64,000 nt of DNA from Enterobacter cloacae complex sp. ECNIH7 (GTDB lineage Bacteria > Pseudomonadota > Gammaproteobacteria > Enterobacterales > Enterobacteriaceae). The stretch spans positions 496,001 to 560,000 of the forward strand of contig NZ_CP017990.1 in assembly GCF_002208095.1 (NCBI RefSeq), given 5' to 3'. A program made the position numbers and the translations under genes. This document shows, piece by piece, positions 46,603 through 56,062 of the stretch (positions within the stretch are counted from its first letter, which is position 1; every line of letters begins with the position of its first letter). Below the pieces are notes generated by a model. It was not told the origin of the DNA. It ran no database searches and saw only the letters and a program-made list of their open reading frames with translations.

Positions 46603-46629
46603 CGGGGGCCAGTGGCTCCCGTTTTTTTT
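46603..46629 (+). terminator. Intrinsic terminator of cybC
   Basis: CGGGGGCC-AGT-GGCTCCCG hairpin (one mismatch) followed by a run of eight T. Confidence 0.88.
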
Positions 46630-46722: not shown

Positions 46723-46738
46723 CGTGATATTCATCACG
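46723..46738. promoter_or_regulatory. CRP-like site upstream of the DUF4310-4312 locus
   Basis: CGTGATATTCATCACG: both core GTGA and TCAC halves at the 6-nt CRP spacing, outer bases C and G instead of T and A. It lies 170 nt before the first gene. Carbon catabolite control of a sugar-acid locus would be expected; binding is inferred. Confidence 0.5.
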
Positions 46739-46802
46739 CAAATACCGGGATTAATTCAGATTCACCGCATTTATGTGGCACAGATCACTGCTGCGGCTCG
46801 CC

Positions 46803-46822
46803 TTTCCACTTCGAAGTGGAAA
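46803..46822. promoter_or_regulatory. Perfect 20-bp palindrome, probable activator site
   Basis: TTTCCACTTC-GAAGTGGAAA is symmetric at every base. It lies 86 nt before the first gene of the ten-gene locus. The locus encodes its own PRD-type DNA-binding activator (53558-55468), the obvious candidate to bind here. The remaining bases of the 46630-46908 gap show no other clear signal. Confidence 0.6.
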
Positions 46823-46908
46823 ACAACTCGCTACAAACAATTCCCCCCCAACGTTAGTTTTATTCCAGAGCCATTAACGGGGTAAGACCAGTGATTAACG
46901 GAGCGGTA

Positions 46909-47229
46909 ATGAACGACGTTGGGGAACAGGCGGAGCAAACAGAACAGCTCGCGAACACCATGCTGCAGCAGGTTTATGCCCTGCTGGCCCGGAACAACAT
47001 CATCCCCAATGCGGTACAGGAGCAGATGCTCACCTCCCACGTGCGCGCCATGGCGCACCGGTCCGTGACCGGCGAGCCGCTGCCGGAGGTTGAAGCAGAG
47101 CTGTTTGACGAAATTTCACCGGATTCAATGCGGCTTGCCCGTGAAGTGGTGGCGCAGTTTGGCAACCTTCCTGATGAAGAAGCCTGGCTGCTCTCCGTTC
47201 ACTTTGAAGTCGCGAAAGACAACCTTTAA
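46909..47229 (+). CDS. Stand-alone PRD-domain protein
   Basis: Small cytoplasmic protein of 106 residues that looks like a single PTS regulation domain, all helical, with His44 and His50 (LTSHVRAMAHRS) and His98 (LLSVHFEVAKDNL) as possible phosphorylation sites. It has no DNA- or RNA-binding part. The ATG at 46909 has GGAG 5 nt upstream; a GTG at 46891 is an alternative. It heads an operon with SFCGS and DUF4312-4310 proteins; the same order is recalled for the EF_0829-type clusters of Enterococcus and Aeromonas. It may be a phosphorylatable subunit of the uptake system. Confidence 0.8.
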   Translation: MNDVGEQAEQTEQLANTMLQQVYALLARNNIIPNAVQEQMLTSHVRAMAHRSVTGEPLPEVEAELFDEISPDSMRLAREVVAQFGNLPDEEAWLLSVHFEVAKDNL

Positions 47230-47239
47230 GGAGCAACAC

Positions 47240-47602
47240 ATGGAACAGATTACAGTCGTGATTGGCGATCGCCTGGGTAAAGGTCAGAAAGTGGCTGCCG
47301 GTGTGGAAAAAGCAGGTGGACGCGCGGTGGTCGTACCGGGCATGGCGGCGGACATGAAGCTCGGCGACGTGATGAAAGCGGAAAACGCCACCTTCGGCAT
47401 CTCCTTCTGCGGCAGCGGCGGCGCGGGTGCCATCACTGCCCAAACCAAATATGGCTACAAAGCCAAATACGGCATGCGTTCCGTGGAAGAGGGCGTGACC
47501 GCCATTAACGAAGGCTGCAACGTGCTGGGCTTCGGCTTTATGGATAAAGAAGAGCTGGGCGAGCGTCTGGTGCAGGCGTGGCAGAAGAAATACGGCGCAT
47601 AA
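47240..47602 (+). CDS. Glycine-rich SFCGS-family protein
   Basis: Protein of 120 residues, probably cytoplasmic. Its hallmark is GISFCGSGGAGAITAQTKYG (53-72) with Cys57 in a Gly-rich loop. The first half resembles an alternating alpha/beta fold (QITVVIGDRLGKGQKVAAGV). Size, a single prominent Cys in a glycine loop, and a PRD neighbour are reminiscent of a PTS EIIB subunit, but the motif is not a known EIIB motif; this is speculation. It starts 10 nt after the PRD gene (AAGGAG at 47227-47232) and ends 2 nt before the DUF4312 gene. Confidence 0.82.
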   Translation: MEQITVVIGDRLGKGQKVAAGVEKAGGRAVVVPGMAADMKLGDVMKAENATFGISFCGSGGAGAITAQTKYGYKAKYGMRSVEEGVTAINEGCNVLGFGFMDKEELGERLVQAWQKKYGA

Positions 47603-47604
47603 GC

Positions 47605-47904
47605 ATGAAAGAACAGTTCACAACCACGGTGAGAGTGAAGGGGAAGGGCGACGCCAAAGCGCGCGCCTTTGCCGACGCGCTCAACCACGTTCAGGCCGCG
47701 GTGATGAAAGCCTCACCGCATATCTTACTGCGTATTGAGCCACAGGATGTGCAGGTCGTTCAGGCGCAAGAAGCGGTGCGAAAAGAAGCCTTTCTGTTCT
47801 TCTTTCTGCGCCGGGAAAGACGCACCTACAGCGTGGAGCTGGATGTGACCGTCAACGTGACCGCCATCAATCTTGACCAGGTGGATTTCGTCACGCAACG
47901 CTGA
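47605..47904 (+). CDS. DUF4312-family protein
   Basis: Protein of 99 residues without membrane segments. It opens MKEQFTTTVRVKGKGDAKARAFADAL, then has a strand-rich second half (RRTYSVELDVTVNVTAIN) after a basic/aromatic stretch (KEAFLFFFLRRERR). The fold is not recognised. It lies between the SFCGS gene and the two membrane-protein genes and is expected to act with them. The start 2 nt after the previous stop was chosen over an out-of-context upstream ATG. Confidence 0.8.
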   Translation: MKEQFTTTVRVKGKGDAKARAFADALNHVQAAVMKASPHILLRIEPQDVQVVQAQEAVRKEAFLFFFLRRERRTYSVELDVTVNVTAINLDQVDFVTQR

Positions 47905-47926
47905 TTATTCATAAAAGGGCAGACTG

Positions 47927-48703
47927 ATGTTCTTAATTATATTAATAAAATCGCTCATCATTGGCGGCCTGGTTGGCGTCGGTGTCGGAGCCGGGGCTGC
48001 ACGCATGTTTCATGCGCCTACCACTCAGGGTATGGGCGCGTTTCGTACGTTGGGGGAACTGAACTCCTGTGAAGGGGATCCGGCGTCCCACTTCTCCTTT
48101 GGGTTAGGTTTCTTCTTTAACGCCTGGGCCTCTTCCGTGGCCGCAGGTGCCTTCACACAGGACGTTGACCACCGCATCATCCCGAACTGGGGTGCTGCTG
48201 CACTGATGATCAAAAACCGTAACGTCGGCGAAACGCTGCACGATCCCCGCAAAATGGCGATTGCCTGCGGCGTGATTGGCATGCTCGTCGTCACCTTCCT
48301 GAACCTGACCGCCTCCTCCGTGCCCGCTGCGCTTCAGGTCACCGCCGTGAAGGTGCTGGTACCGGCGGCAAACCTGCTGGTGAACACCGTCATGCCGGTG
48401 ATCTTCTGGCTGGCGGCCATCGACGCGGGTAAAAAATCGGGCTTCTGGGCCACCATCTTTGGCGGCGCGGCGCAGCTGATCATGGGCAACGCCGTACCGG
48501 GCCTGGTGCTGGGGATCCTGATCGGGAAAGGCGTGGAAGAGAGCGGCTGGAACCACGTCACCAAAGTGATGATGGCGGCGATCGTCCTGCTCTTCGTGCT
48601 GAGCGGCTTCTTCCGCGGCTTCGACATGAAGATGATCGAATCCTTCCATCTGACCGTGCCGAACTGGCTCGACATGATCCACAACTCGCTCAGCGGTAAA
48701 TAA
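47927..48703 (+). CDS. DUF4311-family membrane protein
   Basis: Inner-membrane protein of 258 residues with about six helices: LIILIKSLIIGGLVGVGVGAG, a conserved hydrophilic loop (FRTLGELNSCEGDPASHFSFG, about 39-59), FFFNAWASSVAAGAF, MAIACGVIGMLVVTFLNL, VLVPAANLLVNTVMPVIFWL, GNAVPGLVLGILIGKG and VMMAAIVLLFVLSGFF. The loop with Cys, Asp and His, and Asp55/Asp-His in FTQDVDHRIIPNWG could bind substrate or a metal. It is presumed to form a transporter with the DUF4310 protein encoded 13 nt downstream. No known transporter family was recognised. Confidence 0.85.
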   Translation: MFLIILIKSLIIGGLVGVGVGAGAARMFHAPTTQGMGAFRTLGELNSCEGDPASHFSFGLGFFFNAWASSVAAGAFTQDVDHRIIPNWGAAALMIKNRNVGETLHDPRKMAIACGVIGMLVVTFLNLTASSVPAALQVTAVKVLVPAANLLVNTVMPVIFWLAAIDAGKKSGFWATIFGGAAQLIMGNAVPGLVLGILIGKGVEESGWNHVTKVMMAAIVLLFVLSGFFRGFDMKMIESFHLTVPNWLDMIHNSLSGK

Positions 48704-48716
48704 CAGGAGCCTCTAA

Positions 48717-49358
48717 ATGGAACAGAATAAAGGTTTTTGGTATGCCGACTGGTCGTTCCCGATCTTCGTTGGCCTGCTCTCCTCCGGCGTGTTTGCCGGG
48801 ACGCACATGTACTACCTCTACGGCATCGGCGCGTTTAACGAAGTGGCCTTCGTGGCGATGCTGAAAGCGGGGATCGATACCGGCGTCTACGGCGCGGTGG
48901 CGGCGTTCGGCGCGAGCTTCCTGTTCGCCCGTATTATCGAAGGGTCGCTGGTCGGTATTCTCGACATCGGCGGCGCCATCCAGACCGGCGTGGGCCTCGG
49001 CGTTCCGGCGCTGCTGCTGGGCGCGGGCATCATGTTCCCGGTGACCAACTTCATTGCCGCGCTGATTACCGGCCTGGTGATTGGTCTGGCGATTGGCTAC
49101 GTCATCATCCTGGCGCGTAAGTTCACTATCAACCAGAGCAACTCCACCTACGGCGCAGACGTGATGATGGGCGCGGGCAACGCCTCCGGCCGCTTCCTCG
49201 GGCCGCTGATTATTCTCAGCGCCATGACCGCCTCCATTCCAATCGGCGTCGGCTCGCTGGTGGGTGCGCTGCTGTTCTACATCTGGCAGAAGCCGATTAC
49301 CGGTGGCGCTATCCTCGGTGCGATGATTCTGGGCTGGCTGTTCCCGGTCGCCCTTTAA
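48717..49358 (+). CDS. DUF4310-family membrane protein
   Basis: Inner-membrane protein of 213 residues with about six helices (WSFPIFVGLLSSGVFAGTHM, AGIDTGVYGAVAAFGASFLF, GVGLGVPALLLGAGIMFPV, FIAALITGLVIGLAIGYVII, FLGPLIILSAMTASIPIGVG, GAILGAMILGWLFPVAL). Gly-rich helices suggest tight packing, as in channels and exchangers. A loop between helices 4 and 5 (NQSNSTYGADVMMGAGNASGR) is hydrophilic and conserved-looking. It is adjacent to the DUF4311 gene and probably its membrane partner. Function not established. Confidence 0.85.
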   Translation: MEQNKGFWYADWSFPIFVGLLSSGVFAGTHMYYLYGIGAFNEVAFVAMLKAGIDTGVYGAVAAFGASFLFARIIEGSLVGILDIGGAIQTGVGLGVPALLLGAGIMFPVTNFIAALITGLVIGLAIGYVIILARKFTINQSNSTYGADVMMGAGNASGRFLGPLIILSAMTASIPIGVGSLVGALLFYIWQKPITGGAILGAMILGWLFPVAL

Positions 49359-49400
49359 TACCCGCGGGCGCTCCGGCGCCCGCCTTTTCAGGAGATCCTC

Positions 49401-50534
49401 ATGTTTGATTTACTCCTGCGCCGTGCGCGCCTCGCCGACGATACCCTGACCGATATCGCCATTCAGGACGGGAAGATTGCCGCGACGGGCGACATTGACG
49501 CTCCCGCTCGCAAGACGGTTGATCTTAACGGTGACGTGTTCGTCAGCGCAGGCTGGATTGACTCCCATGTACACTGCTATCCGAATTCCCCGATTTACCA
49601 CGACGAGCCGGACAGCGTGGGCATTGCCACCGGCGTCACCACCGTAGTGGACGCGGGCAGTACCGGGGCCGACGACGTGGACGATTTCTATGACATCACC
49701 CGCAGGGCCTCCACTGAGGTCTTTGCCCTGCTGAACATCTCCCGCGTGGGGCTGATTGCCCAGAACGAGCTGGCCAACATGGCCAATATTGACGCCGACG
49801 CGGTGAAGCAGGCGGTGACGCGCCACCCTGATTTTATCGTCGGCCTGAAGGCGCGCATGAGCAGCAGCGTGGTCGGTGAAAACGGCATCACGCCGCTGGA
49901 GCGTGCCAAAGCCATTCAGAAAGAGAACGGCGACCTGCCGCTGATGGTTCATATTGGCAACAACCCGCCGAACCTCGACGAGATTGCCGAGCTGCTGAGC
50001 TCCGGCGACATTATCACCCACTGCTATAACGGCAAGCCCAACCGCATTCTGACGTCGTCCGGCGAGCTGCGCGCCTCCATTTCCTCCGCCCTGAAGCGCG
50101 GCGTGCGTCTGGACGTCGGTCACGGCACGGCGAGCTTTAGCTTTGAGGTGGCAAAACGCGCCATCGCGATGGGTATTCTGCCGCACACCATCAGCTCGGA
50201 CATCTACTGCCGCAACCGCATCAACGGCCCGGTGGGCTCGCTGGCAAGCGTGATGTCGAAGTTTCTCGCCATCGGCATGTCGCTGCCGCAGGTGATTGAC
50301 TGCGTGACTGCGAACGCCGCCGACGGCCTGCGCCTGGTGCGCAAGGGCCGCATTCAGCCGGGTCTCGACGCCGACCTGACGCTGTTTACGCTTAAGCGCC
50401 AGCCGACGGTGCTGACGGATGCCGAAAATGACAGCCTGCAGGCTGAACACATTCTGGTGCCGCTTGCCGCGATCCGCGCGGGCAAGGGCTACATGACCGA
50501 ACAAGGGAGCACGGAACATGCCTTCGATTTATGA
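49401..50534 (+). CDS. Metal-dependent amidohydrolase/deacylase (EF_0837 type)
   Basis: Cytoplasmic enzyme of 377 residues of the amidohydrolase superfamily with a complete two-metal site: His56 and His58 (DSHVHCY), Lys150 for the bridging carbamate (VGLKARMSSS), His184 (VHIGNN), His207 (THCYNG) and Asp267 (SSDIYC). Related proteins remove N-acyl or O-acyl groups from amino-acid or hydroxy-acid derivatives. Followed by DgaE and DgaF, it most likely deacylates an N-acylated amino-sugar acid. It overlaps dgaE by 17 nt, so the two are coupled. Exact substrate unknown. Confidence 0.87.
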   Translation: MFDLLLRRARLADDTLTDIAIQDGKIAATGDIDAPARKTVDLNGDVFVSAGWIDSHVHCYPNSPIYHDEPDSVGIATGVTTVVDAGSTGADDVDDFYDITRRASTEVFALLNISRVGLIAQNELANMANIDADAVKQAVTRHPDFIVGLKARMSSSVVGENGITPLERAKAIQKENGDLPLMVHIGNNPPNLDEIAELLSSGDIITHCYNGKPNRILTSSGELRASISSALKRGVRLDVGHGTASFSFEVAKRAIAMGILPHTISSDIYCRNRINGPVGSLASVMSKFLAIGMSLPQVIDCVTANAADGLRLVRKGRIQPGLDADLTLFTLKRQPTVLTDAENDSLQAEHILVPLAAIRAGKGYMTEQGSTEHAFDL

Positions 50535-51636
50535 GAAGTACAACTTAAAGCAGGTGATCAATACCTCCGGCCGCATGACGGCGCTGGGCGTCTCCACGCC
50601 GCGCCCGGAAGTGGTGCAGGCGGCGATGGACGGCATGAATCACTATTTCGAGATGAAGGATCTGGTCAATAAAACCGGGGAATACATTGCGAAGCTGCTG
50701 GATGTAGAAGGCGCGACGGTGGTTTCCTGCGCGTCGGCGGGCATAGCCCAGTCGGTGGCGGCGGTGCTGGTCAAAGACAGCGACTGGCTGCTGGAAAACC
50801 TGCACGTGACCCCGATTGAGAACAACGAAATCGTCCTGCCGAAAGGCCACAACGTAAACTTTGGCGCGCCGGTGGGCACCATGGTGGCGCTGGGCGGCGG
50901 CAAGCTGGTGGAGGCGGGCTACGCCAACGAATGCTCTGCCGATCAGCTGGCGGCGGCGATCACCCCGCGCACGGCGGCGATCCTCTACATCAAATCTCAC
51001 CACTGCGTGCAGAAAAGCATGCTCAGCGTCGGGCAGGCGGCGGTGGTGGCGCGCAAGCACGATCTCCCGCTGATCGTCGATGCGGCGGCGGAAGAAGATT
51101 TGCACGCGTACTACCGATCCGGCGCCGATCTGGTGATCTACAGCGGCGCGAAGGCGATTGAAGGCCCAACCAGCGGGCTGGTGATCGGCAAAACCCAGTA
51201 CGTTGAGTGGGTGAAGCGTCAGACCGCGGGCATTGGCCGCGCGATGAAGGTCGGTAAAGAGGGGATCCTCGGTCTGACCTGCGCCATCGAACACTACCTT
51301 ACCGCGACCAAAGAGAGCGGGGCCGAGATGGTGGCGAAGATGACGCCGTTTATCGAGGCGCTCAACACCCTGAACGGCGTGACCGCTCGCGTGGTCTGGG
51401 ACAGCGCCGGTCGCGATATCGCCCGTACCGAGATTAAGTTCGACGAAGCCACGACCGGCGTCGGCACGGGCGATCTGGTGGCGAAGCTCAAGCAGGGCGA
51501 ATACGCCATTTACTTCCGTGGCTACAAGGCCAATGAAGGGATTATCGAGGCGGACGTGCGCAGCGTGAACGCTGACCAGCTGAACATCGTCTACCGCCGC
51601 ATTAGCGAAGTATTAGGACAGGAGAAAAAAGCATGA
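50518..51636 (+). CDS. DgaE-type PLP-dependent ammonia lyase
   Basis: Pyridoxal-phosphate enzyme of 372 residues (SelA-like, fold type I). In Salmonella, DgaE converts D-glucosaminate-6-phosphate to 2-keto-3-deoxygluconate-6-phosphate plus ammonia. Lys212 in VIYSGAKAIEGPTSG should hold the cofactor, and Asp188 in LPLIVDAAAEEDL its ring nitrogen. KSHHCVQKSMLS (159-170) is a likely substrate loop. It is coupled to the amidohydrolase upstream and to dgaF downstream (4-nt overlap). Whether the substrate is glucosaminate-6-P or another 2-amino acid is not shown. Confidence 0.87.
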   Translation: MPSIYEKYNLKQVINTSGRMTALGVSTPRPEVVQAAMDGMNHYFEMKDLVNKTGEYIAKLLDVEGATVVSCASAGIAQSVAAVLVKDSDWLLENLHVTPIENNEIVLPKGHNVNFGAPVGTMVALGGGKLVEAGYANECSADQLAAAITPRTAAILYIKSHHCVQKSMLSVGQAAVVARKHDLPLIVDAAAEEDLHAYYRSGADLVIYSGAKAIEGPTSGLVIGKTQYVEWVKRQTAGIGRAMKVGKEGILGLTCAIEHYLTATKESGAEMVAKMTPFIEALNTLNGVTARVVWDSAGRDIARTEIKFDEATTGVGTGDLVAKLKQGEYAIYFRGYKANEGIIEADVRSVNADQLNIVYRRISEVLGQEKKA

Positions 51637-52373
51637 AACTGACCCCTAACTTTTACCGTGACCGCGTCTGCCTGAACGTGCTGGCAGGATCGAAAGCCAA
51701 CGCCAGCGCCATTTACGAGGCGGCGGAAGGTCACGTGCTGGTGGGCGTGCTCTCCAAAAATTACCCGGACGTGGCGAGCGCCGTTGCCGACATGCGCGAA
51801 TACGCCGCGCTGATTGATAACGCGCTCTCCGTCGGCCTCGGCGCGGGGGATCCGAACCAGTCGGCGATGGTGAGCGAGATCTCCCGTCAGGTGCAGCCGC
51901 AGCACGTTAACCAGGTCTTTACCGGCGTGGCCACCAGCCGCGCGCTGCTGGGGCAGAATGAGTCGGTGGTCAACGGTCTGGTCTCTCCAACCGGCACCGT
52001 CGGGATGGTCAAAATCTCCACCGGACCGCTGAGCAGCAACGCTCCGGACGGCATTGTGCCGGTTGAAACCGCGATTGCCCTGCTGAAGGATTTCGGCGGC
52101 AGCTCCATCAAATACTTCCCGATGGGCGGCCTGAAGTGCCGTGACGAGTACAAAGCGGTGGCGGAAGCCTGCGCCCGTCACGACTTCTGGCTGGAGCCGA
52201 CCGGAGGTATCGATCTGGAAAACTATGAGGAGATCCTGCAGATCGCCCTCGACGCGGGCGTGAGCAAAATCATCCCGCATATCTACAGCTCGATTATCGA
52301 CAAAGCCAGCGGTGATACGCGTCCGGAAGATGTGCGTACGCTGCTGGCGATGACGAAGAAGCTGGTGAAGTAG
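51633..52373 (+). CDS. DgaF-type ketodeoxyphosphogluconate aldolase
   Basis: Class I aldolase of 246 residues expected to split 2-keto-3-deoxy-6-phosphogluconate to pyruvate and glyceraldehyde-3-phosphate. Lys160 in GGSSIKYFPMGGLK sits where KDPG aldolase has its Schiff-base Lys (VKFFPA). WLEPTGGIDLENY (near 198-210) gives the usual second-half phosphate-binding loop. It overlaps dgaE by 4 nt (ATGA), so lyase and aldolase are made together. It is a different family from Eda. Confidence 0.87.
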   Translation: MKLTPNFYRDRVCLNVLAGSKANASAIYEAAEGHVLVGVLSKNYPDVASAVADMREYAALIDNALSVGLGAGDPNQSAMVSEISRQVQPQHVNQVFTGVATSRALLGQNESVVNGLVSPTGTVGMVKISTGPLSSNAPDGIVPVETAIALLKDFGGSSIKYFPMGGLKCRDEYKAVAEACARHDFWLEPTGGIDLENYEEILQIALDAGVSKIIPHIYSSIIDKASGDTRPEDVRTLLAMTKKLVK

Positions 52374-52398
52374 AACTCACATATATACAGGAGCCACC

Positions 52399-53535
52399 AT
52401 GCACACCCGTACCCTGCTTGTTGCTTCACTCTCAATGTTCGCCAACGCCGCTATCGCCCAGACGCAGTACGCCTGGGTGGGCACCTACAACCCCAACGGC
52501 GAAGGGCTGTACCGCTTCACCGTTGACCCGCAAAGCGGCGCGCTGGCGAATAAAACGCTGGTGAGCAAGCTGCCGAACGCCGCGCAGCTGGCCGTCTCGC
52601 ACGACGGCAAAATGCTGTATCTGGCAAGCGAAGTGGAGCAGGGCGTGGTGCAGGCGCTGCGGGTGGGGGATAACGGCCAGCTGAGCGAGCTGAATCAGGT
52701 GGCCTCCGGCGGCGCGGGGCCGGTTTACCTGTCGCTGACGCCGAACGGTCGCCATCTTCTGGTGGCGAACTACGTCAGCGGATCTATCGCGGTGCTGCCC
52801 GTTAAAGCAGACGGCAGCCTGGGTGAGGCTACGGATAAGCATCAGGATCAGGGCGAGCCGGGCGCGGCGAAGCCGGAAGCGGCAGCGGAGGGCAGCTTTG
52901 CCATCAGCGATCATAACGGCCCACACGCGCACATGATCGCCGCCGATCCGAGCGGGAAATACGTCTTTTCTACCGATCTTGGGCTGGATCGCCTCTACCA
53001 GTACCGTTTTGACGATCGAACAGGAAAGCTGACGCCGAACGATCCGCCGTTTATCAATGCCTCCTCAAAAGGCGCCGGGCCGCGCCACTTTGTCTTTACG
53101 CCAAAAGGCGATGCCCTGTGGCTGATTAACGAAGAGGCGTCTACGCTCACCCATTATACCGTGAGCACCAACGGCACCTTAAAAGAGGGCAAAACGCTTT
53201 CAGCCCTGCCGGAAGGCTACAAAGGCACCAGCTTTGCTGCCGGGCTCGCATTAAGCGCCGACGGTAAACAGCTGTATGTGGCTAACCGTTTGCATAACAG
53301 CATCGGGCACTTTACCGTAACAGCGGAGGGAACGCTGACGCATCAGGACGACGTCTGGACGCGCGGCGACTACCCGCGCACCCTGACGCTCGATAAGCAG
53401 GGGCGCTGGCTGTACGTCATGAACCAGCGCAGCGACAACATCACCCGTTTCCGCGTGGCGCAGGGCGGGAAATTGAGCTTCGAGCCAGACTATACCCCGG
53501 TCGGCAGCCCATCCCAGATGGTCATTTCACCTTAA
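52399..53535 (+). CDS. Exported lactonase-family beta-propeller protein
   Basis: Protein of 378 residues of the YbhE/Pgl-like (seven-bladed propeller) lactonase family. A signal peptide (MHTRTLLVASLSMFANAAIA, cut before QTQYA) sends it to the periplasm, unlike cytoplasmic Pgl. Repeated blades read as in VSHDGKMLYLASEVEQG, SLTPNGRHLLVANYVSGS, ALSADGKQLYVANRLHNS, TLDKQGRWLYVMNQRSDN. It lies between dgaF and the regulator gene, so a plausible job is to open a sugar lactone before uptake. Activity not shown. Confidence 0.83.
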   Translation: MHTRTLLVASLSMFANAAIAQTQYAWVGTYNPNGEGLYRFTVDPQSGALANKTLVSKLPNAAQLAVSHDGKMLYLASEVEQGVVQALRVGDNGQLSELNQVASGGAGPVYLSLTPNGRHLLVANYVSGSIAVLPVKADGSLGEATDKHQDQGEPGAAKPEAAAEGSFAISDHNGPHAHMIAADPSGKYVFSTDLGLDRLYQYRFDDRTGKLTPNDPPFINASSKGAGPRHFVFTPKGDALWLINEEASTLTHYTVSTNGTLKEGKTLSALPEGYKGTSFAAGLALSADGKQLYVANRLHNSIGHFTVTAEGTLTHQDDVWTRGDYPRTLTLDKQGRWLYVMNQRSDNITRFRVAQGGKLSFEPDYTPVGSPSQMVISP

Positions 53536-53557
53536 GCTGTAATAAGAGGACAAGCCC

Positions 53558-55468
53558 GTGCGATTTCCGAACCAACGTTTAGCGCAACTGTTCGATCTGT
53601 TGCAAAACGAGACGCTGCCGCAGGACGAGCTGGCGCAGCGGCTGTCGGTCTCCACGCGAACCGTCCGTGCCGATATCACCGCCCTGAACGCGCTGCTGGC
53701 AGGCCACGGCGCGCAGTTTATATTGAGCCGGGGCAACGGCTATCAGCTCAAAATTGATGATGCCCAGCGCTACCAGCAGCTGCAGGCATCCCACCCGCGC
53801 GCGCTGCGTATTCCCCGGACCGGGCCGGAGCGCGTGCACTATCTGGTGGTGCGTTTTCTCACCTCGGCGTTTTCTCTTAAGCTGGAGGATCTGGCGGACG
53901 AGTGGTTCGTCAGCCGCGCCACGCTGCAAAGCGACATGGCCGAAGTCCGCGAGTGGTTCCACCGCTATAACCTGACGCTGGAAACGCGTCCTCGCCACGG
54001 CATGAAGCTGTTTGGCAGCGAGATGTCGACCCGCGCCTGCCTGACCGATCTGCTCTGGGAGCTTGCGCAGCAGGACAGCCTGAACCCGCTGGTGACCGAC
54101 GTGGCGCTGAATGCAGGCGTGGCGGAGCAGATGGTGCCCGTGCTGCACGAGGCGCTGACGCGTCATCACATCCGTCTGACAGACGAAGGCGAGCTGTTCC
54201 TGCGCCTGTACTGCGCGGTGTCGGTGCGGCGCATCAGCGAGGGCTATCCGCTGCCGGAATTCCACGCCGAAGACGTGGAAGAGAACGTGCGCGAGGCGGC
54301 GAAGGATATCGCCGTCACTATCCAGCAGCTGGCGGGCAAAGCGCTTTCACCTTCGGAGGAGAGCTGGCTGTGCGTGCACATTGCGGCGCGGCAGATTCAG
54401 GAGATTGCCCCGAGCGCAATTAACGCGGATGACGACGAAGCGCTGGTCAACTACATCCTGCGCTATATCAACACCCACTATAACTACAACCTGCTGAGCG
54501 ACGCGCAGCTGCACGCGGACCTGCTCACGCACATCAAAACCATGATCACCCGCGTGCGGTATCAAATCATGATCCCCAATCCGCTGCTGGATAACATCAA
54601 GCAGCACTACCCGATGGCGTGGGATATGACCTTGGCGGCGGTGTCGAGCTGGGGAAAATACACGCCTTATGTGATCAGCGAAAACGAAATCGGCTTCCTG
54701 GTGCTGCATATCGGCGTCGGGCTGGAGCGCCACTACAACATCGGCTACCAGCGTCAGCCGCGCGTGCTGCTGGTGTGCGACGCAGGTAATGCCATGGTCC
54801 GCATGATTGAAGCGGTGCTGCAGCGCAAGTACCCGCAAATTGAGGTGGCCCGCACGCTCACCCTGCGCGAGTACGAGCTGGCGGAAACGATTAGCGAAGA
54901 CTTTGTGATCGCCACCGCCCGCGTCAGCGAAAAGTCCAAACCGGTGGTGACGATCGCCCCGTTCCCGACCGATTACCAGTTAGAGCAGATCGGCAAGCTG
55001 GTGCTGGTGGACCGCACCCGCCCGTGGATGCTGGATAAATACTTCGACGCGGCCCATTTCCGCATTATCGACAAGCCCGTTGACCAGCAAACGCTGTTTC
55101 GCGAGCTGTGCGCGCAGCTTGAAGGCGAGGGGTTTGTCGGCGCGGAGTTCCTGGATTCGGTCGTTGAGCGTGAAGCCATCGTCAGCACCATGCTCGGCGA
55201 CGGCATCGCGCTGCCGCACTCCCTCGGCCTTTTAGCGCAGAAAACCGTGGTCTATACCGTCCTCGCCCCGCACGGCGTACAGTGGGGCGACGAAACCGCG
55301 CACGTCATCTTCCTGCTCGCCATCAGCAAAAGCGAATACGAAGAGGCGATGGCGATTTACGATATCTTCGTCACCTTCCTGCGTGAACGGGCGATGTCGC
55401 GGCTCTGTAGCTGCAGTGACTTTGCCGAATTTAAGGCGGTGGCAATGGAGAGTTTGAGTCGGTTTTGA
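53558..55468 (+). CDS. PRD-containing transcriptional activator with EIIB- and EIIA-like domains
   Basis: Regulator of 636 residues of the LicR/MtlR/ManR type. Two helix-turn-helix parts (5-45, LPQDELAQRLSVSTRTVRADI; 95-135) precede PRD1 (about 165-285, with His203/204 and His274) and PRD2 (about 295-395, with His319 and His384). A GatB-like EIIB part (VLLVCDAGNAMV, Cys407) and an EIIA-like part (GDGIALPHSLG, His554) follow. Its activity should be set by phosphorylation from the PTS. The GTG start at 53558 has AAGAGGA upstream. It probably drives the ten-gene locus through the palindrome at 46803. Confidence 0.9.
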   Translation: MRFPNQRLAQLFDLLQNETLPQDELAQRLSVSTRTVRADITALNALLAGHGAQFILSRGNGYQLKIDDAQRYQQLQASHPRALRIPRTGPERVHYLVVRFLTSAFSLKLEDLADEWFVSRATLQSDMAEVREWFHRYNLTLETRPRHGMKLFGSEMSTRACLTDLLWELAQQDSLNPLVTDVALNAGVAEQMVPVLHEALTRHHIRLTDEGELFLRLYCAVSVRRISEGYPLPEFHAEDVEENVREAAKDIAVTIQQLAGKALSPSEESWLCVHIAARQIQEIAPSAINADDDEALVNYILRYINTHYNYNLLSDAQLHADLLTHIKTMITRVRYQIMIPNPLLDNIKQHYPMAWDMTLAAVSSWGKYTPYVISENEIGFLVLHIGVGLERHYNIGYQRQPRVLLVCDAGNAMVRMIEAVLQRKYPQIEVARTLTLREYELAETISEDFVIATARVSEKSKPVVTIAPFPTDYQLEQIGKLVLVDRTRPWMLDKYFDAAHFRIIDKPVDQQTLFRELCAQLEGEGFVGAEFLDSVVEREAIVSTMLGDGIALPHSLGLLAQKTVVYTVLAPHGVQWGDETAHVIFLLAISKSEYEEAMAIYDIFVTFLRERAMSRLCSCSDFAEFKAVAMESLSRF

Positions 55469-55545: not shown

Positions 55546-55788
55546 ATGGCCACGCTGAACGTCCGTCTGGATGACAAACTCAAAAATGAGGCTTATGCCG
55601 TGCTGGAAAAACTCAATATCACCCCAACGGAAGCCGTGCGATTACTGTTTCAGTACGTCGCGGAGACGGGACGTATGCCGGTGAAAACGGTCACGATTAG
55701 CGACAGTGAAGATGCGCTGATACAGACGGTCCGGGAGCGACTGGCGAATCCGCAAAAGGGAATCAAGGTTAGTCTGGATGACTTATGA
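55546..55788 (+). CDS. relB: RelB/DinJ-family antitoxin
   Basis: Antitoxin of 80 residues. The N-terminal ribbon-helix-helix (MATLNVRLDDKLKNEAYAVLEKLNITPTEAVRLLFQYVAE) binds the operator. The C-terminal half (ALIQTVRERLANPQKGIKVSLDDL) wraps the toxin and ends like E. coli RelB. AGGAG-type ribosome site CGGAGG precedes the ATG. It overlaps relE by 11 nt. The same pair next to nrdG is recalled in Salmonella Typhimurium LT2. Confidence 0.92.
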   Translation: MATLNVRLDDKLKNEAYAVLEKLNITPTEAVRLLFQYVAETGRMPVKTVTISDSEDALIQTVRERLANPQKGIKVSLDDL

Positions 55789-56062
55789 ACTGGCATTTGA
55801 CCCGATGGCGTTAAAGGAGTGGTGCAAGCTGGGGCAGACTGTAAAAGACCAGTTTAAGAAGAAACTTGCGGACGTGCTGGTGAACCCCAGGGTCGAATCG
55901 GCCCGCCTGCATGGTCTGCCGGATTGCTACAAAATAAAACTCAGAACGCAGGGTTATCGTTTGGTCTATCAGGTTCAGGACAACGTTGTAACGGTATTTG
56001 CTATCGCTATCGGTAAGCGAGAGAAATCAGCCGTTTATCATGATGCAAACAAACGGCTTTAG
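55778..56062 (+). CDS. relE: RelE-type mRNA interferase toxin
   Basis: Ribosome-dependent endoribonuclease of 94 residues that cuts mRNA in the A site. It is close to E. coli RelE along its length (ALKEWCKLGQTVKDQFKKKL, LPDCYKIKLRTQGYRLVYQV, GKREKSAVYHDANKRL), including the catalytic basic residues (Lys and Arg of KKKL and YRLVYQ) and the late Tyr in AVYHDA. It looks intact. It ends only 3 nt before convergent nrdG ends on the other strand. Confidence 0.93.
   Translation: MTYELAFDPMALKEWCKLGQTVKDQFKKKLADVLVNPRVESARLHGLPDCYKIKLRTQGYRLVYQVQDNVVTVFAIAIGKREKSAVYHDANKRL

What the first reader, a model, noticed from the sequence alone, without database searches (positions are those of the whole stretch)
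46723..55468. Ten-gene locus with an unclassified membrane system and a DgaE/DgaF-like pathway
Seen: PRD protein, SFCGS protein, DUF4312, DUF4311 and DUF4310 membrane proteins, metallo-amidohydrolase, DgaE-type lyase, DgaF-type aldolase, exported lactonase and a PRD activator, all on one strand with short gaps or overlaps. Known: DgaE and DgaF degrade D-glucosaminate-6-phosphate. Inferred: the locus imports an acylated (or lactone) amino-sugar acid, deacylates it, removes ammonia and cleaves the product to pyruvate and a triose phosphate. The four small proteins plus two membrane proteins would be a new type of transporter. From memory the core is also found in Enterococcus and Aeromonas (EF_0829-EF_0839) and in Salmonella at the same place, without assigned function.
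Basis: partly seen in the sequence, partly recalled or inferred. Interest (0 to 1): 0.85.

Follow-up and report, generated by a model that had tools for sequence, protein, structure and literature searches.

The report
PTS-linked amino-sugar-acid operon, unclassified transporter
A bacterial operon carries enzymes that probably strip, deaminate and split an unusual amino-sugar acid, together with a membrane protein pair of unknown fold and helper proteins that seem wired to the cell's sugar-phosphorylation system; neither the food nor the way in is yet known.

Summary
The gene list is right: ten genes on one strand, 46891-55468, in the stated families. They are the unassigned NCBIfam set EF_0829-EF_0839. 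In the 80 nearest loci (all Enterobacterales) eight genes (PRD, SFCGS, DUF4312, DUF4311, DUF4310, amidohydrolase, DgaE, DgaF) occur in 80 of 80, in one order with no room for a kinase, the regulator in 79, the exported lactonase in 46.

New evidence: (1) two Bartonella plasmids of one lineage carry the core and regulator plus an HPr-EI fusion; (2) a 20-bp palindrome, unique in the host genome, sits 88 bp upstream, with a like site at -87 in Bartonella; (3) the DgaE-like enzyme keeps three Arg placed near the phosphate in Salmonella DgaE; (4) SFCGS resembles RpiB, Cys kept, His99 replaced; (5) SFCGS and DUF4311 occur in the same 7 of 299 genomes.

Most likely: a PTS-dependent operon for an acylated amino-sugar acid. 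A transporter role for DUF4310/4311 is inferred; no fold match was found for DUF4311. Group translocation is possible, not shown.

The parts
46774..46789 (+). CRP-like site TGTGGCACAGATCACT
   Evidence: read; mostly conserved in the consensus of 75 upstream regions; likeness to the CRP consensus recalled, not tested
46803..46822 (.). candidate operator: perfect 20-bp palindrome TTTCCACTTCGAAGTGGAAA, proposed binding site of the PRD activator
   Evidence: only site in the host genome at up to 2 mismatches; pattern with a Y/R centre matched exactly in 75 of 80 loci and within 2 mismatches in 78 of 80; TTTCC-N10-GGAAA at -87 in Bartonella
46891..47229 (+). small single-PRD protein, EF_0829 family, GTG start
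   Evidence: TIGR03582 139.8 bits over 69.35; two His shared by all four EF_0829-type sequences aligned, their role as PRD phosphorylation sites recalled
47240..47602 (+). SFCGS protein, probably RpiB-like fold, Cys57 in the C-G-S-G loop
   Evidence: TIGR03577; PF02502 second-best Pfam match, E 0.013; model and fold comparison
47605..47904 (+). DUF4312 protein, EF_0831 family, function unknown
   Evidence: TIGR03578; PF14189
47927..48703 (+). DUF4311 polytopic membrane protein, EF_0832 family
   Evidence: TIGR03580 513.7 bits; AlphaFold2 model, mean pLDDT 82.3 in the best of five, helical
48717..49358 (+). DUF4310 polytopic membrane protein, EF_0833 family
   Evidence: TIGR03579 393.7 bits; hydrophobic segments
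49401..50534 (+). amidohydrolase/deacetylase metallohydrolase, EF_0837 family
   Evidence: TIGR03583 and NF006689 over cut-off; PDB 8wzy 720.8 bits over 376 residues, 2ics E 2.8e-110; HxH, Lys, His, His, Asp shared by three sequences, roles recalled
50518..51636 (+). DgaE-family PLP ammonia-lyase
   Evidence: TIGR01437 606 bits over 385; DGL residues His162, His163, Arg301, Arg332, Arg346 conserved (roles from PMC9529869), and a Lys in S-G-A-K taken as the PLP Lys (recalled)
51633..52373 (+). DgaF-type KDGP aldolase
   Evidence: TIGR03581 410 bits and NF047796 394 bits over cut-offs; the only PF07071 match in the genome
52399..53535 (+). exported 7-bladed lactonase, accessory gene
   Evidence: PF10282 320 bits; signal-peptide-like N-terminus by eye; in 46 of 80 loci
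53558..55468 (+). PRD activator (HTH, Mga, two PRD stretches, EIIA-type domain; an EIIB-like Cys region by eye), GTG start
   Evidence: PF08279, PF05043, PF00874 in two stretches, PF00359; aligned with Bartonella and E. faecalis homologues

Best explanation
A single operon, switched by its own PRD activator acting at a palindrome 88 bp upstream (with a CRP-like site next to it), for uptake and breakdown of an acylated 2-amino-sugar acid. Inferred uptake: DUF4311 and DUF4310 form one membrane complex that brings in the sugar acid, and the substrate becomes phosphorylated with phosphate that ultimately comes from EI and HPr; the small PRD protein (His) and SFCGS (Cys57, RpiB-like fold) are the candidates for carrying phosphate or for handling the phosphorylated sugar. 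Enzyme steps, from family and residues: the metallo-amidohydrolase removes the acyl group, the DgaE-like PLP enzyme eliminates ammonia to give a 2-keto-3-deoxy sugar-acid 6-phosphate, and the DgaF-like aldolase splits it into pyruvate and a triose phosphate. In about half of the loci an exported lactonase would first open a sugar lactone in the periplasm. Shown: genes, order, co-inheritance, the conserved palindrome, a PTS-type regulator, HPr-EI in Bartonella, active-site residues. Inferred: substrate, order of steps, that the regulator binds the palindrome, transporter role, route of phosphate. My odds: amino-sugar-acid phosphate catabolism 0.75; DUF4311/4310 transport it 0.65; function depends on EI/HPr 0.65; phosphorylation is coupled to uptake through these very parts 0.3.
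For: Eight-gene core 80 of 80, regulator 79 of 80 (the missing one, L069, lies on a contig that ends there), no gap over 156 bp between core genes, so no kinase inside. SFCGS and DUF4311 in the same 7 of 299 genomes. DgaE-like: the two active-site His and the three Arg near the docked phosphate of DGL are conserved (roles in PMC9529869); E. faecalis and Bartonella copies keep the three Arg; the PLP protein YhfS lacks both His and the third Arg in the alignment. DgaF equivalog cut-off met. Bartonella HY761 and HY406 plasmids (one lineage): core and regulator without lactonase, plus an HPr-EI fusion with GLHARP and GGATSHVA motifs directly downstream; in the two related records opened, of 396 with a match, a glucose-type EIIBC gene lies next to the homologous EI gene or one gene away. 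DUF4311 was found in 0 of 394 and 0 of 397 genomes sampled from the family and order of handle G079, which I take to be alphaproteobacterial, so the Bartonella copy looks acquired as a unit. Palindrome unique in the genome and exact in 75 of 80 loci, with a like site at the same distance in Bartonella, met by 18 of 20000 random sequences. Regulator carries PRD and EIIA domains. Precedent: in Salmonella DgaR is controlled by HPr and by the permease (PMC4987338, passages).
Against: HPr-EI in Bartonella may serve only the PRD regulator and the PRD protein, not uptake; it is one lineage, and only two neighbourhoods of its relatives (55% identical or less) were read. The three Arg also occur in PDB 8t7j, whose substrate I do not know, and YhfS has an Arg at the second position too, so they do not prove a phosphate. 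Bartonella DgaE lacks the first of the two His. The E. faecalis cluster carries an ordinary EIIC, MupG and a PfkB kinase, and its regulator shows no EIIA domain, so phosphate could come from a kinase or a second PTS. I did not search the host genome for a sugar-acid kinase. No EII family matched DUF4310, DUF4311, DUF4312, SFCGS or the small PRD protein. The DUF4311 model is good in one of five runs only, and no fold matched. The DgaE equivalog cut-off is not met (381 of 600 bits). Three of 80 loci, all Erwiniaceae-type by title, have 2 to 5 mismatches in the palindrome, and one locus has two sites.
Confidence: 0.55

Rival explanations
1. DUF4311/DUF4310 are an ordinary secondary carrier or channel for the free sugar acid; phosphate is added inside by a kinase elsewhere in the genome (for instance a 2-keto-3-deoxygluconate kinase after the lyase). 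PTS phosphate only controls the regulator.
For: A PfkB-family kinase follows the aldolase in the E. faecalis cluster; no EII domain in the membrane proteins; the Arg cluster also in 8t7j.
Against: No room for a kinase between the core genes in 80 of 80 Enterobacterales loci and none annotated in the Bartonella cluster; the three Arg kept in window, E. faecalis and Bartonella lyases. Kinases elsewhere in the genome were not searched for.
Confidence: 0.3
2. DUF4311/DUF4310 with SFCGS and DUF4312 are not a transporter but a membrane-bound enzyme or sensor complex; uptake is by another permease.
For: SFCGS resembles an isomerase fold with a conserved Cys; the E. faecalis cluster has its own EIIC; DUF4311 and DUF4310 are more conserved than the enzymes (medians 96% and 94% against 84-91%), which I find unusual for a plain permease; no transporter fold found for DUF4311.
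Against: No other permease is annotated in the Bartonella cluster, and the Enterobacterales gaps leave no room for one between the core genes; DUF4311 is predicted as a polytopic helical protein.
Confidence: 0.15

Closest known systems
Salmonella dgaABCDEF operon (D-glucosaminate PTS and enzymes)
   Same: DgaE-type lyase with the same active-site residues, DgaF-type aldolase, PRD-type control
   Different: dga uses a PTS permease (mannose family by the title of the 2013 paper in a reference list) and a sigma-54 activator DgaR (PMC4987338, passages); here no recognisable EII proteins, instead DUF4310/4311/4312/SFCGS/PRD, plus an amidohydrolase, and the lyase misses the DgaE equivalog cut-off
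NCBIfam set EF_0829-EF_0839 (TIGR03577-TIGR03583)
   Same: this is that set
   Different: its models give no function to the non-enzyme members; E. faecalis adds an EIIC, MupG and a kinase and has no lactonase match in the 24.7 kb searched
E. coli yhfSTUWXYZ operon
   Same: small PRD protein, small protein with a Cys motif (DUF2620) and a membrane protein in one operon with a PLP enzyme
   Different: no sequence relation of YhfT to DUF4310/4311 above controls; the PLP protein YhfS lacks the two active-site His of DgaE
RpiB/LacAB isomerases
   Same: SFCGS aligns with RpiB over the Cys66 loop and in predicted fold
   Different: position 99 is Asn90, shorter protein, below the Pfam cut-off

Membership tests
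[quoted passage not shown]
   381.3 bits
DgaE family TIGR01437 (subfamily) | curated cut-off 385.3 bits | tested here: met
   606.2 bits
DgaE family TIGR01437 (subfamily) | His162/His163 and Arg301/332/346 of DGL, plus the PLP Lys | tested here: met
   aligned to 7lc0; His and Arg roles from PMC9529869, PLP Lys recalled; the Bartonella copy lacks the first His
KDGP aldolase DgaF (NF047796) | curated cut-off 300 bits | tested here: met
   393.8 bits
PTS permease (EIIA/EIIB/EIIC) | EIIA, EIIB and EIIC domains recognisable by sequence in the transport proteins | tested here: not met
   no EII Pfam family listed for PRD, SFCGS, DUF4312, DUF4311 or DUF4310 at E up to 10 (HMMER filters drop most matches above about 0.1); EIIA only in the regulator
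PTS permease (EIIA/EIIB/EIIC) | phosphate passed from HPr to the incoming substrate | not testable with these tools
   Bartonella HPr-EI is indirect
PTS permease (EIIA/EIIB/EIIC) | EIIC fold in DUF4311 | tested here: inconclusive
RpiB/LacAB (PF02502) for SFCGS | Pfam gathering score 24.7 | tested here: not met
   15.9 bits, E 0.013
RpiB/LacAB (PF02502) for SFCGS | RpiB fold | tested here: inconclusive
RpiB/LacAB (PF02502) for SFCGS | Cys66 and His99 of E. coli RpiB | tested here: not met
   Cys57 matches Cys66; Asn90 lies at position 99 (alignment to the H99N mutant 2vvr); roles of the residues recalled
PRD transcription activators (MtlR/LicR type) | HTH, Mga, two PRDs, EIIA domain | tested here: met
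   that these features define the type is recalled
YhfT family for DUF4311/DUF4310 | sequence homology above shuffled controls | tested here: not met
   profile scores within the range of shuffles, hhalign none

The most novel reading that the evidence does not exclude
DUF4311/DUF4310 with the small PRD protein, DUF4312 and the RpiB-like SFCGS protein form a group-translocating uptake system fed by EI and HPr but built from none of the known EII domains: a PRD domain as phospho-His carrier and an RpiB-fold Cys protein in the EIIB role.
Probability: 0.25. Interest if true: 0.88.

Novelty: new variant of a known kind. Interest (0 to 1): 0.58.

Why it matters
Families found in Enterobacterales, Enterococcus and a Bartonella plasmid carry no function in the family libraries or in the paper searches made here. 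The palindrome, the PTS link, the phosphate-site residues and the RpiB-like SFCGS protein turn them into a small set of direct tests. If phosphate passes through these parts, the bacterial PTS would have a permease class not recognised so far. In E. faecalis one gene of the set (EF0839) was reported among promoters active in urine, though it could not be told from its identical twin EF2975 (PMC2912369, passages); [quoted passage not shown]

Tried and rejected
YhfT as a fused DUF4311+DUF4310: looked plausible by eye (FH motif at residues 28-29 in both) but hhalign and a profile comparison with shuffled and reversed controls gave nothing; dropped. SFCGS-YhfU: hhalign P 5.2e-4 with six sequences (probability 31%) and 0.004-0.006 with larger sets; left open. 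DUF4311's weak hit in E. coli and in two relatives, below cut-off: in the two relatives it is a J-domain-type protein with a glycine-rich N-terminus (DjlA, recalled); the E. coli place was not shown; taken as chance. DUF4312: nothing beyond its own family. Fused DUF4311-DUF4310 proteins in metagenomes (P0008, P0012, P0042, P0049): junctions all differ, so read as assembly joins. Viral contigs: none. E. coli genomes: no megablast match, which would miss distant copies. Fold of DUF4311: no listed family stands out; DUF4310 was not folded. More Bartonella-like cases: 0 of 394 and 0 of 397 genomes (the two draws may overlap, and the taxon of the handle is my inference). A weak SFCGS hit in Lactococcus lactis, below cut-off, was not traced. 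Protein searches listed only the best 120 of 1436, 1471 and 1368 hits. Papers, all seen as listings unless said: DUF4310/DUF4311/DUF4312/SFCGS, cog3964/Atu3266/EF0837, STM4445-STM4450, yhf genes, PDB codes, MupG and others, TIGR03580/TIGR03577 and acetylglucosaminate, EF0829-EF0839; none of what I saw gives a function for the transport genes, and subscription journals are mostly missing from the library. STM4446 appears in a table of PMC11000858 under protein synthesis (passage); that it belongs to this locus is recalled, not checked. Work on Atu3266 deacylating acyl hydroxy and amino acids is recalled only. The 2013 dga paper was not held.


Full report
Observation. They lie on the + strand from 46891 to 55468 with gaps of 2-42 bp and two overlaps. 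The 168 bases of the given range before the first gene are upstream DNA. The set is the NCBIfam group EF_0829-EF_0839; its non-enzyme members are 'hypothetical equivalogs'.

Conservation. In these, PRD, SFCGS, DUF4312, DUF4311, DUF4310, amidohydrolase, DgaE and DgaF occur in 80 of 80, the regulator in 79 (the other contig, L069, ends there), the lactonase in 46. No gap between these eight genes exceeds 156 bp, so no kinase or permease is hidden among them; between DgaF and the regulator the loci without lactonase have 15-389 bp. pmbA was found in 71 and nrdG in 65 of the 80 fetched stretches, so the site is mostly the same. Over 299 Pseudomonadota genomes SFCGS and DUF4311 are found over cut-off in the same seven, the window's own included. 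SFCGS, DUF4311 and DUF4310 are the most conserved members (medians 97, 96 and 94%), above the enzymes (84-91%).

Control DNA. A perfect 20-bp palindrome, TTTCCACTTCGAAGTGGAAA, lies at 46803-46822. Allowing two mismatches it is the only one in the 5.39-Mb genome. With a Y/R centre the pattern is exact in 75 of 80 loci and within two mismatches in 78 of 80; the worst has five; one locus has two sites. A CRP-like site lies just upstream and is mostly conserved. On the Bartonella plasmid stretch one TTTCC-N10-GGAAA occurs in 19.6 kb, 87 bp before the PRD gene; the window has one in 64 kb, 88 bp before its PRD gene. The relaxed arms were chosen after seeing the Bartonella sequence; 18 of 20000 random sequences made from its dinucleotides had one. 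The regulators are 52% identical. I take this as the operator of the PRD activator; binding is not shown.

PTS link. Bartonella sp. HY761 and HY406, with nearly the same plasmid, carry core and regulator without lactonase, followed by a 671-residue HPr-EI fusion with HPr and EI histidine motifs (motifs recalled). Of 396 plasmid records with a match to this EI, I opened two beyond Bartonella: Caballeronia grimmiae, with ptsG next to it, and Azospirillum thermophilum, with ptsG one gene away. DUF4311 was found in 0 of 394 and 0 of 397 genomes sampled from the family and order of handle G079, which I take to be Bartonella's kin from its small genome and its kinship label. So the cluster seems to have been acquired with its own phosphate donor. 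This suggests dependence on the PTS, not the point at which phosphate is used: the regulator itself has PRD and EIIA domains, and the small PRD protein has two His shared by all four EF_0829-type sequences.

Enzymes. [quoted passage not shown] PMC9529869, section 0 part 1). E. faecalis keeps all of them, Bartonella lacks the first His. 8t7j, of a substrate unknown to me, has the three Arg too, and YhfS has one of them but neither His. The score misses the DgaE equivalog cut-off, so the exact substrate may differ. The aldolase meets the DgaF equivalog cut-off and is the only PF07071 match in the genome. The amidohydrolase is very close to PDB 8wzy and related to 2ics, and keeps its metal ligands (roles recalled).

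Membrane pair. DUF4311 is predicted as a helical membrane protein with moderate confidence in one of five models and matches no solved fold. DUF4310 was not folded. Neither has a sequence match to a transporter in Pfam or the PDB. That they transport the substrate rests on their place in the operon. The idea that they correspond to YhfT failed its control.

E. faecalis. Its cluster inserts an EIIC, a 99-residue membrane-like protein and MupG before the amidohydrolase and has a PfkB kinase after the aldolase; its regulator shows no EIIA domain. A study of enterococci suggested amino-sugar metabolism for EF0839 and EF2975 (PMC7701990, passages); EF0839 or its identical twin came up in a urine screen (PMC2912369, passages); dgaEF duplication was noted in PMC7396535 (passages). 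In Salmonella, DgaR is controlled by HPr and by the permease (PMC4987338, passages).

Verdict. The stronger new claim is that the unit is wired to the PTS. Whether it is itself a PTS-like permease is the question worth testing.

Noticed in passing
window 55546-56062: Two ORFs directly downstream of the regulator; at the same place the Klebsiella record names a RelB/DinJ and RelE/ParE pair.
   Followed up: no
window 46604-46629: By eye, a hairpin followed by a T run after cybC, which looks like its terminator, so the operon probably has its own promoter.
   Followed up: no
L095:13548-16280: E. faecalis cluster contains an ordinary EIIC (PF02378), a 99-residue membrane-like protein and MupG between DUF4310 and the amidohydrolase.
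   Followed up: partly
L096 and L130: Bartonella bat isolates carry a 55-kb plasmid with this operon next to type VI secretion genes; L096 holds an inverted duplicate of its replication and partition genes.
   Followed up: partly
P0008, P0012, P0042, P0049: Metagenome proteins joining DUF4311 to DUF4310 at different junctions; probably assembly joins.
   Followed up: partly
L082:6936-14345: E. coli yhf operon has a similar layout (PRD protein, Cys-motif small protein, membrane protein, PLP enzymes) and its genes are named putative or uncharacterized; homology of the membrane part not shown.
   Followed up: partly
L132:7482-11854: A Caballeronia plasmid has a ptsP-ptsG pair, apparently a self-contained glucose-type PTS.
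   Followed up: no
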